From contig NZ_CP133592.1 in the NCBI RefSeq assembly GCF_031312595.1, positions 1,364,001 through 1,428,000 on the forward strand: a stretch of DNA of 64,000 bases, given 5' to 3'. The DNA comes from Methanolobus sediminis (GTDB lineage Archaea; Halobacteriota; Methanosarcinia; Methanosarcinales; Methanosarcinaceae). The position numbers and the translations under genes were made by a program. The notes under the pieces were generated by a model, which did not search any database, was not told where the DNA came from, and saw only the letters and a list, made by a program, of their open reading frames with translations. This document shows positions 3,414 through 48,893 of this stretch, piece after piece (positions within the stretch are counted from its first letter, which is position 1; every line of letters begins with the position of its first letter).

Positions 3414-4870
<1,457 letters not shown>

Positions 4871-42796: not shown

Positions 42797-42924
42797 AGAT
42801 AAAAATCTGTCATGACAATTATTTACTCTTTTTGATAGCTGCAATTATTTCCTGAAACCTACCTTTTGCAGAGTTTTTTTTCTTAAGCACACATCTTTAA
42901 ATAGTACACACTATTAGATATTTT

Positions 42925-44079
42925 ATGCAATCCGAAGGTCAAAAAGAGATAATTAGCGAGGAACTGCTTCCAGTCACGGATATTGATATCAGGGCACTGG
43001 CTGAGGTATATGATGAAAAACCTGTTTACCTTTCTGTTTACCTGCCGGTATCCAGAAGGGAAAATGAGCATTTGAACCGTATTTTTGTGGACTCAAGAGT
43101 GAGTGCTATCAAAAAAGCTTTGAACCCTGAACTTCGCTCTGAGTTTGAAAAGACCTTTGAGCTGGCAGGATCCTCAGTTTTTGAGGAGCCAATTTCAGGT
43201 GAAAAAGGAAGAATCATTTTTGCAAACTCAAAGGAATCCTTCCTTCATGTTTACAGGCTTGCAGTGGAACCGGAGCAGTCATTTGTTCTTGATACCTCAC
43301 CTTATATGCTTCCGCTTGCAAGACTGAGAGCAGATTATGAGGATTATGGTGTGCTTCTGGTTGATTCACAGGAAGCTAAGTTCACATGCATACGTTCCGA
43401 TATCGCAGAAGAAAAGAAACACCTTTCAACTGACCTTATGAACAAACACAAAAAAGGAGGCTGGAGCCAGATGCGTTTCAACCACCTGAGAAAAGGAGCC
43501 ATCAAATCCTTCCTGTCAGAAGTTGCTGAAAATGTCCAGGGAACATGTAACCAGTTAGAGACAAGAGGTTTTGTTCTTGCAGGACCAGGGGAAGCAAAGC
43601 AGCAGCTTATGGAAATGCTGCCATATGAAGTCCAGCAGAAGGTTCTGGGCGTGATTGATGTTCCCATTGCTATTCCAAGAGATGAACTGGTGGAAGCCGG
43701 AGATGCTGTACTTCAGGAAAGTGAACATTCTGAGGCCAGACATGCTGCTGAAGAACTCAAGACAGCTCTGTTAAAAGGTGGTCTTGCAGCACATGGGATT
43801 GATGATGTAAAGGATGCTCTGGAACAGGCAAGGGTGAACATCCTGCTGATCCTGAAGGATTCATCGGTTCCAGGCTGGATCTGTGAGAGATGCCAGAACC
43901 TGCAGGCAAGTGCCAATGCTCCAAAGGAGTGTGACAGGTGTGGAGGACCAACATCTTCTGTGAATGTTATTGAGGAACTCTATGAACTTGCCCAGCGCAC
44001 AGATGCGAAGGTCGTCTTCGTGGAAAAAGAGGATTTTCTGGATTCTGATGATGTTGTGGGTGCGCTTCTAAGATACTAA
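42925..44079 (+). CDS. eRF1/Vms1-like release-factor family protein
   Basis: A 384-residue protein related to archaeo-eukaryotic peptide chain release factor 1 (baeRF/VLRF1-type). An N-terminal alpha/beta domain (about 1-125) is followed by an RNase H-like middle domain (about 140-290), which contains KKGGWSQMRF at residues 176-185, the place of the GGQ-type loop (GGxSQxRF in Vms1-like proteins). A zinc ribbon (CERCQNLQASANAPKECDRC) and an RF1-like domain 3 follow. Such proteins cleave peptidyl-tRNA on stalled ribosomes; here the Gln of GGQ is replaced by Trp but Gln follows as SQ. Function on UAG is a speculation worth testing. Confidence 0.82.
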   Translation: MQSEGQKEIISEELLPVTDIDIRALAEVYDEKPVYLSVYLPVSRRENEHLNRIFVDSRVSAIKKALNPELRSEFEKTFELAGSSVFEEPISGEKGRIIFANSKESFLHVYRLAVEPEQSFVLDTSPYMLPLARLRADYEDYGVLLVDSQEAKFTCIRSDIAEEKKHLSTDLMNKHKKGGWSQMRFNHLRKGAIKSFLSEVAENVQGTCNQLETRGFVLAGPGEAKQQLMEMLPYEVQQKVLGVIDVPIAIPRDELVEAGDAVLQESEHSEARHAAEELKTALLKGGLAAHGIDDVKDALEQARVNILLILKDSSVPGWICERCQNLQASANAPKECDRCGGPTSSVNVIEELYELAQRTDAKVVFVEKEDFLDSDDVVGALLRY

Positions 44080-44152: not shown

Positions 44153-45445
44153 TCATTCGTCCGGATGCCATTTCTTCATATGCTCTGCATGTGTTTTCAA
44201 GTAAGCTCCTTTCCCATAGAACCTGTCATAGAAATCAAGGTCCAGATGATGAGCCTGCAGGTATGGCAGTACAAACATGCTGGGTACGGTTCCGGGGAAC
44301 TTCCCGAATGTATCATAGATATACTGAGCCTGGAGCGCGGCACATTCTTTGAAATGCTCATCAGGGACCTGCGCACTGCTGCGTACTCCTGCCGTATCCT
44401 TGTAGTATCCGGGTGTTTCAGGGTTATATGGTCCTCCCGGGCCGAATTTCCTTTCCATTAGTGCGTCCACAGCATGTCGCATATTACGATAGTGAGGTGG
44501 TGTGAATCCCTCAAAGACACCTTCAAGTCCTGTAGGATTTGGAAGGGACCAGCGTTCATCGGTGTCATACCTGAATCCAAGTCCGGGAACTTCCGGGTCA
44601 CCACTTGCACCAAGAACTGAGAACGGGTCCATACCATTGAACAACCATCCACCCAGACCCATGGCCTGCAGCATGAGCATACCTGCATAGCATGAGATAC
44701 CAAGTTCTGTTGTCAGTTCTGAGAGGGACCACATTTCCAGAAAAGTGAGAGGATAGGGTTCTTTCACATCCACGATATCCGAGAACTGTTCTATTCCATC
44801 CATCTGTTTCCCGTTCACATCGTCATAGAAGCAGATACCGTTCTGAACGAAATAACATATACCTGCAAGAATGTGCTGAGCAAGATCTCCAACTGGAATC
44901 ACCATTGTAGTGCCCGGATGGTTGACCACCCATGTATTATGTGCCTCTATATGTGGTGTCTCAGGTGGTATCTTCAGACGACCGTCATATATTTTGTGTA
45001 CACAGCTCCGGTGTGCTTCCAGAAGCTCATCCACATTGAACATCCCGTCCTCGTCCCTTTCAGCCATTGCCGGTGCATCTCTGGTTTTGAATATGTACAC
45101 TCCCTCGTCGTCAGTAAAGAACAGTTCACTTGTGTGGAAACCGGCGGCTGAAGGGAATGTTCTTCCACCGGCACTGCCTGCATAGTTCGACAGATACGGT
45201 GCATAGCGTTCTCCTCGCATGATAAGGTTGTGCCAGCCTGTGTTTCCACCCATAGACGTCAGTAATGTCATTTGCTCAAGCTCTGAAAGTGGTTTTGGCT
45301 TATACTTTGATGTGTACTTGAAGTAACCATCAGGTATAGATGCCCCCATGAAGAACCTGCGTGCTCTTCTTCCGAAAATTGCGTCTGAAAGTCTGAAGTT
45401 CAATACATCTTCGAATCCCGGTGGTAATTTTCCTGTTTCTCCCAC
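44153..45445 (-). CDS. Nitroreductase-fold protein of unknown function
   Basis: A 430-residue protein. It has the nitroreductase FMN-binding pattern in the first half (FGRRARRFF, then KPLSELEQMTLLTSMGGNTG, then a PSAAGFHTSELFF segment) and AGMLMLQAMGLGGWLFNG later. About 120 residues at the C-terminus are specific to this group. It probably binds FMN; substrate unknown. Start: GTG at 45445 with GGAGG 7 bases upstream is better than ATG at 45472. Confidence 0.65.
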   Translation of the reverse strand: MGETGKLPPGFEDVLNFRLSDAIFGRRARRFFMGASIPDGYFKYTSKYKPKPLSELEQMTLLTSMGGNTGWHNLIMRGERYAPYLSNYAGSAGGRTFPSAAGFHTSELFFTDDEGVYIFKTRDAPAMAERDEDGMFNVDELLEAHRSCVHKIYDGRLKIPPETPHIEAHNTWVVNHPGTTMVIPVGDLAQHILAGICYFVQNGICFYDDVNGKQMDGIEQFSDIVDVKEPYPLTFLEMWSLSELTTELGISCYAGMLMLQAMGLGGWLFNGMDPFSVLGASGDPEVPGLGFRYDTDERWSLPNPTGLEGVFEGFTPPHYRNMRHAVDALMERKFGPGGPYNPETPGYYKDTAGVRSSAQVPDEHFKECAALQAQYIYDTFGKFPGTVPSMFVLPYLQAHHLDLDFYDRFYGKGAYLKTHAEHMKKWHPDE

Positions 45446-45647
45446 ATTATTTCCTCCTCTATAGACCCACATTTCATATACAGAAGGTTTTCTTCATGGA
45501 AATACCGTTATAACAGATCCATGTATAAGGAAAAAAGCATATTCCCTCATTGTGATTCTCTGCAGGGATTATGTATGATATTTTTTCCTGCTCCCCATTA
45601 AAAGTTGACTTACATTTGATTTAAGATTTCTGCAAAACAAAACTTAA

Positions 45648-46454: not shown

Positions 46455-47654
46455 ATGTTATACAGGAAAATGCCAAAGAACGGGGACGAGCTCTCAATAC
46501 TGGGTTTCGGTGCCATGCGCCTGCCTTTGAAAGAAGATATGACAATAGATGAACCAAGAGCCATGAAGCAGGTGCGCTGTGCCATCGACAATGGTGTGAA
46601 TTATGTGGATACCGCCTGGCCATATCACATGGGAAAAAGTGAGCCTTTCCTTGGTCGTGCACTTGCAGATGGATACAGGGAAAAAGTAAAACTCGCAACC
46701 AAGCTCCCTATATGGATAGTTAAAAGCAGGGAGGATATGGATAAGTTCCTCAACGCGCAGCTTGAGAGACTTAATACGGATCATATCGATTACTATCTTA
46801 TACACGGTCTGAACGGGAAAAGCTGGATCCAGATGAAAGAGCTTGGTGTAACTGAGTTCCTTGATACTGCAAAAGCAGATGGTCGTATCATCAATGCAGG
46901 TTTTTCTTTCCATGGCAACGGTAAGGATTTTGCACCGATAGTTGATGGTTATGACTGGGATTTCTGTCAGATCCAGTACAACTACATGGATGAACGGAAC
47001 CAGGCAGGAACCGAGGGACTGGAATATGCAGCTTCAAAAGGATTGGGAATCATAATTATGGAACCGCTTCGTGGTGGAAATCTCACAAACCCCGTGCCAC
47101 CTGAAATTGAAGAGATATGGAATACGGCAAAGATAAAGCGCAGTCCTGCGGAGTGGGCTCTGTGCTGGATATGGAATCATCCGGAAGTCACAGTTGTGCT
47201 TTCCGGCATGAATGAGGAATCACATATTGAAGAGAACCTCAGGATTGCAGATGAGGGCAAGCCGAATACTCTTACGGAAAGTGAACTGCAGCTTGTGGGA
47301 AAAGCGGAGCGGAAATACCGTGAAATAATGAAAGCAGGCTGTACAGGATGCAGGTATTGCATGCCATGTCCGGCAGCGGTTGATATTCCAACTTGTCTGG
47401 AGGTCTACAACAACCTGCATATGTTCAAAAAAGAAATGGAATCAAAGATGATGTATACCATGAGACTTGCAGGTATAGTAAGTGCTGATGAAGCACACTT
47501 CGCTTCCCAGTGCGTAAAATGTGGTGAATGTCTTGACAGGTGTCCGCAGCATCTGCCTATACCTGATCTTCTGGAAGAAGTGGTTAAAGACCTTGAAGGA
47601 GATGACCTGGGGTTAAGGGTCGAGATGGTAAAGGAAATGTTTTTTAGGACTTGA
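46455..47654 (+). CDS. Aldo/keto reductase with C-terminal ferredoxin domain, copy 1
   Basis: A 399-residue protein. Residues 1-290 form an AKR barrel with the catalytic tetrad (Asp in YVDTAWPYH, Tyr in WPYHMG, Lys in LATKLP and His in YYLIHGL). Residues about 300-370 carry two 4Fe-4S motifs (CTGCRYCMPCP and CVKCGECLDRCP). Proteins of this type probably use ferredoxin as well as or instead of NADPH. GGAG lies 8 bases upstream of ATG 46455. A close paralogue follows, in tandem. Confidence 0.9.
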   Translation: MLYRKMPKNGDELSILGFGAMRLPLKEDMTIDEPRAMKQVRCAIDNGVNYVDTAWPYHMGKSEPFLGRALADGYREKVKLATKLPIWIVKSREDMDKFLNAQLERLNTDHIDYYLIHGLNGKSWIQMKELGVTEFLDTAKADGRIINAGFSFHGNGKDFAPIVDGYDWDFCQIQYNYMDERNQAGTEGLEYAASKGLGIIIMEPLRGGNLTNPVPPEIEEIWNTAKIKRSPAEWALCWIWNHPEVTVVLSGMNEESHIEENLRIADEGKPNTLTESELQLVGKAERKYREIMKAGCTGCRYCMPCPAAVDIPTCLEVYNNLHMFKKEMESKMMYTMRLAGIVSADEAHFASQCVKCGECLDRCPQHLPIPDLLEEVVKDLEGDDLGLRVEMVKEMFFRT

Positions 47655-47687
47655 TATTCATTTGTTTTCAGAAAAAGGAGAAATTTG

Positions 47688-48893
47688 ATGTTATACAGAA
47701 AAATGCCAAAAAACGGTGATGAGCTTTCAATACTGGGTTTTGGCGCCATGCGTCTGCCAGTAAATGAAGATGGAAGTATAGATGAAAAAACAGCAACTGA
47801 CATGGTTCGAACTTCCATAGACAATGGAGTGAACTATGTTGACACCGCATGGCCTTATCATATGGGAGAAAGTGAGACTTTCCTTGGCCGTGCACTTGCA
47901 GACGGATACAGGGAAAAGGTAAAGCTTGCCACAAAATTACCTCAGTGGATGGTTAAAAAGCCAGAGGATATGGATAAGTTCCTCAATGCACAGCTTGAGA
48001 AACTCAACACCGACCACATTGATTACTATCTTGTACACAGTCTTGTGGGCAGTAGCTGGAAAACGATCAATGAACTTGGCATAAGAGAGTTCCTTGACAA
48101 AGCAAAGGCTGATGGTCGCATAATCAATGCAGGTTTTTCATATCATGGTGCACCAGAGGATCTTGCACCGATAGTTGACGCTTATGACTGGGATTTCTGC
48201 CAGATTCAGTACAATTTCCTGGATACCAATGTTCAGGCAGGGACAGCAGGTCTGGAATATGCTGCATCCAAAGGTCTTGGTGTTGTTATTATGGAACCTC
48301 TGCGTGGCGGGAATCTTGCAGACCCGGTTCCACAGGAAATCCTGAATATCTGGAACGAGGCTGATATCAAACGCAGTCCGGTTGAATGGGCTCTGCGGTG
48401 GGTATGGAACCATCCGGAAGTTACTGTTGTGCTTTCAGGTATGAGTGCACCGGAACATGTTGAAGAGAACCTGAGGATTGCAGAGGATGGTCTTGCAAAG
48501 TCATTGACCGAAAAAGAGCTTCAGCTCGTGGAAAGAGCCGCAGAGAAGTACGGTGAGCTCATGAAGATCAACTGTACGGCATGCAGATATTGTATGCCAT
48601 GTCCTGAAGGAGTCGATATTCCTGCATGTTTTGACGTCTACAACAACCTGTACATGTTCGGTGGTGAAGACCGACTTAAGATGATGTATGCTGCGAAGAT
48701 GGGTGGAATTCTCAGAGGTGCCGAGACAAACTTTGCCTCACAGTGTGTGCAATGTGGTCAGTGTCTGGATGGATGTCCTCAGCAGATTCCAATACCTGAT
48801 ATGCTTGAGAATGTTGCAGAAGAATTTGAAGGTCCGGGTCTTGGAGAAAGGATTGCTTTTGCAAAGCAGTTATTTGCTGATGATAGTTGCTGA
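47688..48893 (+). CDS. Aldo/keto reductase with C-terminal ferredoxin domain, copy 2
   Basis: A 401-residue paralogue of the preceding gene, nearly identical in layout. It has the same tetrad (YVDTAWPYH, LATKLP, YYLVHSL) and 4Fe-4S motifs (CTACRYCMPCP, CVQCGQCLDGCP). Start: ATG at 47688, with AAGGAG 7 bases before it. It lies 33 bases after copy 1, a tandem duplication, likely one transcript ending at the terminator hairpin at 48893. Confidence 0.9.
   Translation: MLYRKMPKNGDELSILGFGAMRLPVNEDGSIDEKTATDMVRTSIDNGVNYVDTAWPYHMGESETFLGRALADGYREKVKLATKLPQWMVKKPEDMDKFLNAQLEKLNTDHIDYYLVHSLVGSSWKTINELGIREFLDKAKADGRIINAGFSYHGAPEDLAPIVDAYDWDFCQIQYNFLDTNVQAGTAGLEYAASKGLGVVIMEPLRGGNLADPVPQEILNIWNEADIKRSPVEWALRWVWNHPEVTVVLSGMSAPEHVEENLRIAEDGLAKSLTEKELQLVERAAEKYGELMKINCTACRYCMPCPEGVDIPACFDVYNNLYMFGGEDRLKMMYAAKMGGILRGAETNFASQCVQCGQCLDGCPQQIPIPDMLENVAEEFEGPGLGERIAFAKQLFADDSC

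What the first reader, a model, noticed from the sequence alone, without database searches (positions are those of the whole stretch)
42925..44079. eRF1-like protein in an organism with recoded UAG
Known: Vms1/VLRF1-type and baeRF proteins act on stalled ribosomes or peptidyl-tRNA. Here the loop reads KKGGWSQMRF, not GGQ. In an organism that reads UAG as Pyl, a second release-like factor could serve ribosome rescue or affect UAG competition. This is speculation from family and context.
Basis: inference. Interest (0 to 1): 0.5.

Follow-up and report, generated by a model that had tools for sequence, protein, structure and literature searches.

The report
Archaeal Balon-like ribosome hibernation factor candidate
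A methanogen gene that looks like a translation release factor lacks the parts that read stop codons and most resembles Balon, a bacterial protein that parks idle ribosomes, but unlike the Balons compared here it keeps an intact loop for the ribosome's catalytic centre, so whether it only blocks that centre or also cuts the growing chain is an open, testable question.

Summary
The ORF is real (384 aa, + strand, loop KHKKGGWSQMRF), in a Methanolobus-like genome with PylS and a separate canonical aRF1. It does not look like a UAG factor: the stop-codon motifs NIKS and YxCxxxF are missing in 60 of 60 aligned relatives (present in 18 and 19 of 19 aRF1s), and in 237 genomes of the class the gene does not track PylS (24 both, 33 gene only, 78 PylS only; Fisher p = 1.0). 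Its predicted structure fits bacterial Balon best (Msmeg1130 Z 29.6, 3.0 A over 366 residues; best eRF1/aRF1 Z about 20, 8.6-10 A). A tree groups it with two bacterial sequences (Msmeg1130 and a relative) against aRF1, archaeal VLRF1 and Pelota (99/95). A 2026 paper already lists 'potential Balon' in Methanosarcinia, so the kind is known. Added here: the archaeal branch keeps an invariant GGxSQ loop (x = W, M, C; once Q), the motif published for VLRF1 factors, and mostly an intact zinc ribbon; both bacterial sequences lack these. Best reading: a codon-blind A-site occupant that silences ribosomes without releasing the peptide. Main rival: a catalytic peptidyl-tRNA-cleaving rescue factor. Neither is shown experimentally.

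The parts
42925..44079 (+). Balon-like aeRF1-superfamily gene, 384 aa, whole ORF with stop TAA
   Evidence: family alignment
42896..42903 (+). TTTAAATA, candidate archaeal TATA box starting 29 nt before the ATG; the spacing suggests a leaderless mRNA (inference)
   Evidence: sequence; TTTAAATA or TTTATATA at this place in 8 of 9 aligned upstream regions (L038 deviates)
42925..43299 (+). N-terminal domain (residues 1-125), decoding-domain fold without NIKS and YxCxxxF
   Evidence: models; Msmeg1130 Z 10.7, aRF1 3vmf/3agk Z 9.7/9.6; motifs
43300..43710 (+). middle domain (residues 126-262, boundaries approximate), Pfam baeRF_family10 / eRF1_2
   Evidence: lowest mean dN/dS of the three domains, 0.07
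43444..43470 (+). loop residues 174-182 KHKKGGWSQ: GGxSQ motif; the canonical catalytic Gln position is Trp180
   Evidence: G178, G179, S181, Q182 in 59 of 59 distinct relatives; position 180 W 32, M 21, C 5, Q 1
43711..44076 (+). C-terminal pelota-type domain (residues 263-384, boundaries approximate)
   Evidence: model; eRF1_3 matched but under cut-off in this protein (23.6 bits, cut-off 25.8), over cut-off in three relatives scanned
43882..43941 (+). zinc-ribbon cysteines C320, C323, C336, C339 in the C-terminal domain
   Evidence: C320, C336, C339 in 59 of 59, C323 in 56 of 59; CxxC...CxxC pattern in 56 of 59; absent in both bacterial sequences

Best explanation
It is an archaeal member of the Balon side of the aeRF1 superfamily: a three-domain, tRNA-shaped protein that most likely binds the ribosomal A site whatever codon is there, places its middle-domain loop at the peptidyl-transferase centre, and keeps ribosomes silent without releasing the peptide. 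Shown here by computation: architecture (predicted), relatedness, loss of stop-codon motifs, replacement of the GGQ glutamine, purifying selection, no link to pyrrolysine. Inferred from bacterial Balon: A-site binding, inhibition of translation, use in starvation or stress. I suppose that the residue at position 180 (Trp, Met or Cys) takes the place of the catalytic glutamine, much as bacterial Msmeg1130 appears to have A-G-Q there, the sequence of a known release-dead eRF1 mutant.
For: Fold: the top six rows of the structural comparison are Balon chains; Msmeg1130 Z 29.6, rmsd 3.0 over 366 residues; best eRF1/aRF1 rows Z 20.0-20.4, rmsd 8.6-10.0. Sequence: the family profile aligns to Msmeg1130 from position 23 to the end and to Rv2629 from 37, but to nearly all full-length aRF1/eRF1 only from about 124 on (3agk from 70). 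Pfam baeRF_family10 is the best hit of the query (1.5e-20) and of Msmeg1130 residues 11-375 (4.9e-36). Tree of 91 rows: archaeal family plus two bacterial sequences on one side of a branch, 99/95, against aRF1, VLRF1 and Pelota (again with 57 rows). A five-residue segment at the YxCxxxF site is missing in 60 of 60 relatives and 2 of 2 bacterial sequences, present in 19 of 19 aRF1 and 6 of 6 VLRF1-like rows (also missing in the 4 Pelota rows, whose N-terminal domain is unrelated). dN/dS 0.08-0.13, middle domain 0.07. The genome already holds aRF1, Pelota and a VLRF1-like protein. Msmeg1130 reads A-G-Q at aligned positions 178-180 (the alignment is weak there); eRF1(AGQ) binds but cannot release (PMC7356799, passages). 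PMC13324472 reached 'potential Balon' for archaeal homologues independently (passages).
Against: The loop is not variable, as Burroughs and Aravind describe for inactive baeRF families: in the alignment its length is fixed and G, G, S, Q are invariant, a pattern they link to active proteins. No neighbour ties it to stress or HPF/RaiA: in 18 neighbourhoods compared, shared neighbours occur within Methanolobus types or within Methanothrix types, not across (with one DinB-type cluster also in L053), and no HPF/RaiA domain (PF02482) was found in the genome. NCBIfam's three Balon equivalog models score far under cut-off (94, 47, 45 bits against 320, 330, 480), and the aRF1 model scores higher than any of them (129 bits, also under its cut-off 234.7). 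Foldseek's E-value ranks aRF1 4af1 first. In VIA-align, Rv2629 Balon (Z 20.9) is tied with eRF1 (Z 20.4). The N-terminal domain alone hardly separates Balon from aRF1 (Z 10.7 against 9.7). Only two bacterial sequences, both on long branches, anchor the tree; one of them (Nonomuraea) is known only as a tblastn relative of Msmeg1130. The archaeal family as one clade has support 63/45 only. The zinc ribbon is aRF1-like. No expression or ribosome-binding data.
Confidence: 0.6

Rival explanations
1. Catalytic rescue factor: the invariant Gln182 of GGxSQ is the active residue, as proposed for VLRF1 proteins, and the protein cleaves peptidyl-tRNA (hydrolysis, or removal of the CCA end as described for Vms1/ANKZF1) on stalled or idle ribosomes without reading a codon.
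For: GGxSQ in 59 of 59 distinct relatives and in 6 of 6 archaeal VLRF1-like rows, whereas Gln at this position occurs in 5 of 19 aRF1s. Pfam acVLRF1 is over cut-off (45.6 bits against 27.1), though the canonical aRF1 also passes it (35.5 bits). PMC6514570 states that aVLRF-1 and acVLRF-1 carry GGxSQ and that baeRF family 10 could be active (passages). Vms1/ANKZF1 is described as cutting the CCA tail (PMC12868832, passages).
Against: One clade with VLRF1 is disfavoured (AU p 0.0215). The genome has a VLRF1-like protein and Pelota already. The residue at the canonical GGQ glutamine position is Trp, Met or Cys in 58 of 59. Five aRF1s of the sample have GGQSQ, so Gln182 can be inherited without a catalytic role.
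Confidence: 0.2
2. Other non-catalytic A-site role, for example ribosome splitting or recycling, as Pelota does with ABCE1 (ABCE1 from recall).
For: Same three-domain shape; Dom34/Pelota is described as catalytically inactive yet acting in rescue (PMC6514570, passages).
Against: The N-terminal domain has the aRF1/Balon decoding-domain fold, and the four Pelota rows form a separate clade. Pelota itself is present in the genome.
Confidence: 0.1
3. Second release factor that competes at, or helps with, UAG codons in a pyrrolysine-using cell.
For: The genome has PylS and the protein is release-factor-like. A review says that Methanosarcina barkeri has two release factors, only one of which appears active in termination (PMC2943090, passage), so spare release factors occur in such archaea.
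Against: NIKS and YxCxxxF absent. No association with PylS in 237 genomes, odds ratio 0.95, p = 1.0. 15 of 21 tested carriers have no PylS over cut-off. In two genomes of a related genus the extra copies carry GGQ (L119, L121) and fall in the aRF1 clade: a different lineage.
Confidence: 0.04
4. Degenerate aRF1 duplicate on the way to loss.
For: Lost motifs relative to aRF1; patchy presence: 20 of 27 genomes of the genus, 57 of 237 of the class.
Against: Strong purifying selection, invariant loop residues across the rows from both samples, tree position outside aRF1, matches in 52 of 243 genomes of another phylum, mostly near full length (counted from the printed list).
Confidence: 0.02

Closest known systems
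Balon, the bacterial ribosome hibernation factor (Msmeg1130, Rv2629, P. urativorans Balon)
   Same: Three-domain fold (Z 29.6 to Msmeg1130), Pfam baeRF_family10, no NIKS, no YxCxxxF, same missing segment, same side of the tree.
   Different: Loop GG[W/M/C]SQ of fixed length (the two bacterial sequences read AGQMR and RGIHP at these columns). Zinc ribbon with four Cys where Balon is described with a beta-hairpin insertion. Archaeal ribosomes have no bL27 for Balon's 'bL27 trap' (PMC10901736, passages).
'Potential Balon' of Archaea (PMC13324472, Nat Commun 2026)
   Same: Same taxa (Methanosarcinia, Thermoplasmatota) and same criteria (no NIKS, no GGQ, distinct lineage); this gene very probably belongs to that set (inference, its sequence list was not seen).
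   Different: A term search of its main text gave 0 hits for 'GGW' and 'zinc ribbon' and one for 'GGQ'. Supplements not read.
VLRF1 families, including archaeal aVLRF1 and Vms1/ANKZF1
   Same: GGxSQ loop motif.
   Different: aVLRF1 has an N-terminal coiled coil and no C-terminal pelota domain (PMC6514570, one section read); here the C-terminal domain is present. One clade with VLRF1 is disfavoured (p 0.0215).
aRF1, the canonical archaeal release factor
   Same: Middle and C-terminal domains, zinc ribbon, 30% identity over residues 121-371 to the genome's own aRF1.
   Different: NIKS, YxCxxxF and the GGQ glutamine are missing.

Membership tests
Balon (bacterial hibernation factor) | three-domain aeRF1-type fold closest to Balon | tested here: met
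   VIA Z 29.6, rmsd 3.0 over 366 residues to Msmeg1130; best non-Balon rows Z 20.4 or less with rmsd 8.6 or more. Foldseek's E-value puts aRF1 first
Balon (bacterial hibernation factor) | NIKS absent | tested here: met
   the string occurs in 1 of 59 distinct rows (L022) and there near the N-terminus, not at the site
Balon (bacterial hibernation factor) | GGQ absent from the middle-domain loop | tested here: met
   58 of 59 distinct rows; L150 has GGQ there
Balon (bacterial hibernation factor) | groups with bacterial Balon in a tree | tested here: met
   99/95 against 29 other rows, but with only two long bacterial rows
Balon (bacterial hibernation factor) | Pfam baeRF_family10, as in Msmeg1130 | tested here: met
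   74.4 bits, cut-off 27.1; Msmeg1130 124.6 bits. The canonical aRF1 also passes (43.4 bits), so this alone does not discriminate
Balon (bacterial hibernation factor) | NCBIfam equivalog cut-off of one of the three Balon models | tested here: not met
   94.3, 46.9 and 45.4 bits against 320, 330 and 480; not an equivalog of any of the three bacterial types
Balon (bacterial hibernation factor) | beta-hairpin insertion, not a zinc ribbon, in the C-terminal domain | tested here: not met
   four-Cys zinc-ribbon pattern in 56 of 59 rows, this protein included
Balon (bacterial hibernation factor) | HP motif at the decoding centre, lasso loop, bL27 trap | not testable with these tools
   the passages read do not give their residues; no ribosome complex could be modelled
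Balon (bacterial hibernation factor) | binds the ribosomal A site and inhibits translation | not testable with these tools
   needs an experiment
VLRF1 | GGxSQ loop | tested here: met
   59 of 59 distinct rows, and 6 of 6 archaeal VLRF1-like rows
VLRF1 | groups with VLRF1 | tested here: not met
   AU p 0.0215 against one clade with VLRF1
VLRF1 | archaeal VLRF1 architecture (N-terminal coiled coil, no pelota domain) | tested here: not met
   the model has a C-terminal domain and no long N-terminal extension; the C-terminal domain of relatives passes eRF1_3
aRF1 | NIKS and YxCxxxF | tested here: not met
   YxCxxxF in 0 of 60 rows against 19 of 19 aRF1; NIKS at the site in 0 against 18 of 19 aRF1
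aRF1 | GGQ | tested here: not met
   Trp180 in this protein
aRF1 | NCBIfam TIGR03676 cut-off | tested here: not met
   129.4 bits, cut-off 234.7

The most novel reading that the evidence does not exclude
The archaeal proteins that the literature counts as 'potential Balon' are not loop-dead: they are three-domain, codon-blind A-site factors with a working VLRF1-type GGxSQ loop that cleave peptidyl-tRNA on idle or stalled ribosomes, and the bacterial hibernation factor Balon arose from such a catalytic archaeal ancestor by losing the loop and the zinc ribbon.
Probability: 0.18. Interest if true: 0.72.

Novelty: new variant of a known kind. Interest (0 to 1): 0.42.

Why it matters
Two published criteria give opposite predictions for the same proteins: 'no GGQ, hence potential Balon' (PMC13324472) and 'conserved glutamine with fixed loop length, hence possibly catalytic' (PMC6514570). 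One in vitro release assay with W180Q and Q182A variants would decide. If the protein only blocks, archaea share an A-site hibernation mechanism with bacteria despite lacking bL27. If it cuts, a new rescue activity exists and Balon may have a catalytic ancestor. It also removes a tempting but unsupported link to pyrrolysine decoding.

Tried and rejected
Pyrrolysine link: rejected by co-occurrence. Caveats: the 57 carriers were picked by me from the match list by score and span (carriers 153 bits or more, aRF1 150 or less; fragments counted; G089 added from fragments seen). That list is cut, so 57 is a lower bound. The genomes are related, so Fisher's p is descriptive. For one search I gave 21 of the 29 loci; the 8 left out are 7 Methanolobus or Methanosarcinaceae and one unnamed archaeon, so 15 of 21 is not a rate. 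Many of these are MAGs, where absence of PylS can be incompleteness. In the sample of 243 genomes (phylum of the genome of L047, titled Thermoplasmatota) I count 52 genomes with a match of 190 bits or more in the printed list, among them five partial matches and three with a stop inside. PylS was not tested there.

Bacterial homologues: tblastn of the query and of the Msmeg1130 N-terminal piece in plasmids found nothing; the longer Msmeg1130 query found one record, Nonomuraea, 30% over 41% of the query. Its full ORF was not scanned against Pfam. So the tree has only two bacterial rows.

Gene neighbourhood: syntenic among Methanolobus types, not shared with Methanothrix types; no stress or hibernation operon recognised. 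Most neighbours outside the window were not annotated. The ORF before the gene in L044, L046 and L059 looks like NAD synthetase (by recall from its sequence) and was not pursued.

N-terminal domain alone: profile search gave Balon at E 1.1 beside a chance-level Alba hit and no aRF1; the fold gave Balon Z 10.7 against aRF1 9.7. Too close to decide by itself.

Literature: Methanolobus with 'release factor' gave 5 papers, 3 listed, none about this gene by title and abstract start (listing only). PMC12605026 (M. acetivorans ribosome): 0 hits for Balon, aRF1 or 'release factor'. Searches behind statements on what is in print.

Rows left out: A1 used 35 rows chosen by hand from the loci then held; partial copies (L027, L029, L030, L057, L058, L060) and near-duplicates were left out. 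The tree used 60 archaeal rows chosen by hand from those held; among others L111, L113 (a stop inside), L114, L118, L142 and L144 were left out. The AU tests used 26 of the 60. In the dN/dS run one of 11 pairs (L037) was saturated and gave no ratio. In a note I named the locus at G000:C1:653210 Pelota; that was wrong: it is the VLRF1-like protein, and Pelota is at G000:C1:864544.

Full report
What is there. Window 42925-44079 (+) is an open frame of 384 codons, ATG to TAA. The window lies in a 2.80-Mb genome, 99.97% complete; among named records the closest copies of this protein are in Methanolobus vulcani strains, 89-91% identity, so I call the organism Methanolobus-like. It has PylS over the family cut-off, in an ORF at 3509-4870 followed by ORFs that I read as pylB, pylC and pylD (pylBCD named by eye). 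A canonical aRF1 with NIKS and GGQ is encoded elsewhere. Pelota (353 bits) and a VLRF1-like coiled-coil protein with loop GGFSQ are also present. The gene has a candidate TATA box starting 29 nt before the ATG, recognisable in 8 of 9 aligned upstream regions. It stands alone: both adjacent ORFs run on the other strand, and its neighbours are shared among Methanolobus types but not with Methanothrix types.

Family. Pfam gives four models over cut-off: baeRF_family10 (1.5e-20), eRF1_2 (1.4e-17), acVLRF1 (9.9e-12) and baeRF_family2 (2.6e-08). NCBIfam gives aRF1 (129 bits) and the Balon models Rv2629 (94 bits, residues 34-384), AOC03_06830 (47) and MSMEG_1130 (45), all under their cut-offs. 34 aligned relatives share 34-91% identity with the query. 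Msmeg1130, a bacterial Balon with a ribosome-bound structure, is itself baeRF_family10 (4.9e-36); so, more weakly, is the canonical aRF1 of this genome (5.3e-11).

Not a stop-codon factor. In an alignment with 19 aRF1s, YxCxxxF is in 19 of 19 aRF1s and in 0 of 60 relatives of this protein. A five-residue segment at that place is missing in these 60 and in both bacterial sequences, present in the aRF1 and VLRF1-like rows, and also missing in the four Pelota rows, whose N-terminal domain is unrelated. The NIKS string is in 18 of 19 aRF1s and, outside the site, in one relative (L022). GGQ strings in L005 and L055 lie outside the loop. Presence does not follow pyrrolysine: of 237 genomes of the class, 24 have gene and PylS, 33 the gene only, 78 PylS only, 102 neither (odds ratio 0.95, p = 1.0). 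Of 21 carriers tested through named loci (of 29 available), 15 lack PylS over cut-off; by title these are Methanothrix and its relatives, unclassified Methanosarcinales and one Thermoplasmatota MAG. By group code, 18 of 50 genomes of family f7 carry the gene and none has PylS, while genus g7 has 0 of 30 carriers and 26 of 30 with PylS.

Closest to Balon. AlphaFold2 with the 35-row alignment gave mean pLDDT 86 and pTM 0.66; the loop is, after the N-terminus, the weakest part (residues 171-180 mean 55), so its shape is not predicted. VIA-align puts six Balon chains first: Msmeg1130 Z 29.6 and 29.4 (rmsd 3.0 over 366 residues), P. urativorans Balon Z 22.2-22.8, Rv2629 Z 20.9. The best eRF1/aRF1 rows have Z 20.0-20.4 and rmsd 8.6-10.0, so Rv2629 and eRF1 are tied by Z. 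Foldseek's E-value has aRF1 4af1 first (8.0e-24) and Msmeg1130 second (3.7e-22), with query TM-scores of 0.51 and 0.80. The family profile reaches Msmeg1130 from position 23 to the end (E 6e-19), nearly all full-length aRF1/eRF1 only from about 124, though with better E-values there (4af1 6.1e-34). The N-terminal domain alone is nearly tied (Z 10.7 against 9.7). A 91-row tree places the archaeal family and two bacterial sequences on one side of a branch with support 99/95 against aRF1, VLRF1 and Pelota; a 57-row tree repeats it, and one clade with VLRF1 is rejected at p 0.0215. Whether the bacterial sequences branch inside or beside the archaeal family is not resolved (63/45).

What differs from bacterial Balon. 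Among 59 distinct relatives, H175, G178, G179, S181, Q182 and R184 are invariant; position 180, the catalytic glutamine of GGQ, is Trp in 32, Met in 21, Cys in 5 and Gln in 1. That is the GGxSQ motif which Burroughs and Aravind give for aVLRF-1 and acVLRF-1 (PMC6514570, passages and one section); six archaeal VLRF1-like sequences have GG[W/F]SQ here. The two bacterial sequences read AGQMR and RGIHP at these columns, in a weakly aligned stretch. The zinc-ribbon cysteines C320, C336 and C339 are in 59 of 59 and C323 in 56 of 59, as in aRF1; the bacterial sequences have none. PMC6514570 suggests that the two-strand insert of bacterial baeRF proteins is a degenerate zinc ribbon, so the archaeal form looks ancestral; that is inference.

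Mechanism. Best supported: a codon-blind A-site occupant of the Balon type. The release-dead eRF1(AGQ) mutant still binds (PMC7356799, passages), and Msmeg1130 appears to have that triplet at the aligned site; the archaeal proteins would have reached a similar state by replacing the glutamine. Purifying selection (dN/dS 0.08-0.13; middle domain 0.07) says that the domain is in use. Against this, the loop is more constrained than a passive plug seems to need, and by the criterion of PMC6514570 (conserved glutamine, fixed length) it could be catalytic. I put about 0.6 on the blocking reading, 0.2 on catalysis by Gln182, 0.1 on another non-catalytic role such as splitting, and little on UAG competition or decay.

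Known or new. PMC13324472 (Nat Commun, April 2026; passages only) reports 'potential Balon' in 30% of Methanosarcinia and in several Thermoplasmatota lineages, lacking NIKS and GGQ. My counts are of the same order: at least 57 of 237 in the class and 52 of 243 in a Thermoplasmatota sample (counted from the printed list). So the gene very probably belongs to a group already in print as candidates. The GGxSQ loop and the zinc ribbon are not in the main text of that paper as far as a term search shows; its supplements were not read. I therefore call it a new variant of a known kind, of moderate interest.

Limits. I found no experiment on the archaeal proteins in the searches listed. Only two bacterial sequences could be brought in, one of them an unverified relative. 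The carrier counts are by hand from cut lists. Balon's decoding-centre and bL27 contacts could not be tested.

Noticed in passing
window 44153-45472 (-): 439-aa ORF just downstream of the gene with no Pfam match at E 0.01 or NCBIfam match at E 0.001; among 18 compared neighbourhoods a relative was seen only in L038.
   Followed up: partly
   Followed up: partly
L119, L121 (genomes G036, G058): Two genomes of a related genus (4.2 and 3.7 Mb) have a second aRF1-clade copy with GGQ; L121 is the one aRF1 row without the NIKS string. Possibly the kind of spare release factor described for Methanosarcina barkeri.
   Followed up: partly
L150 (genome G434): The only relative with a glutamine at the canonical site (loop GGQSQ) while NIKS and YxCxxxF are absent; a reversion or an ancestral state.
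   Followed up: no
L035, L036, L038, L040: In several Methanolobus-type relatives the gene itself ends in TAG; two of these genomes (L036, L038) have PylS over cut-off.
   Followed up: no
window 46455-47654 and 47685-48893 (+): Two tandem aldo/keto reductase-like ORFs that cluster together by blastp; Pfam, run on the first only, gives Aldo_ket_red plus a 4Fe-4S domain.
   Followed up: no
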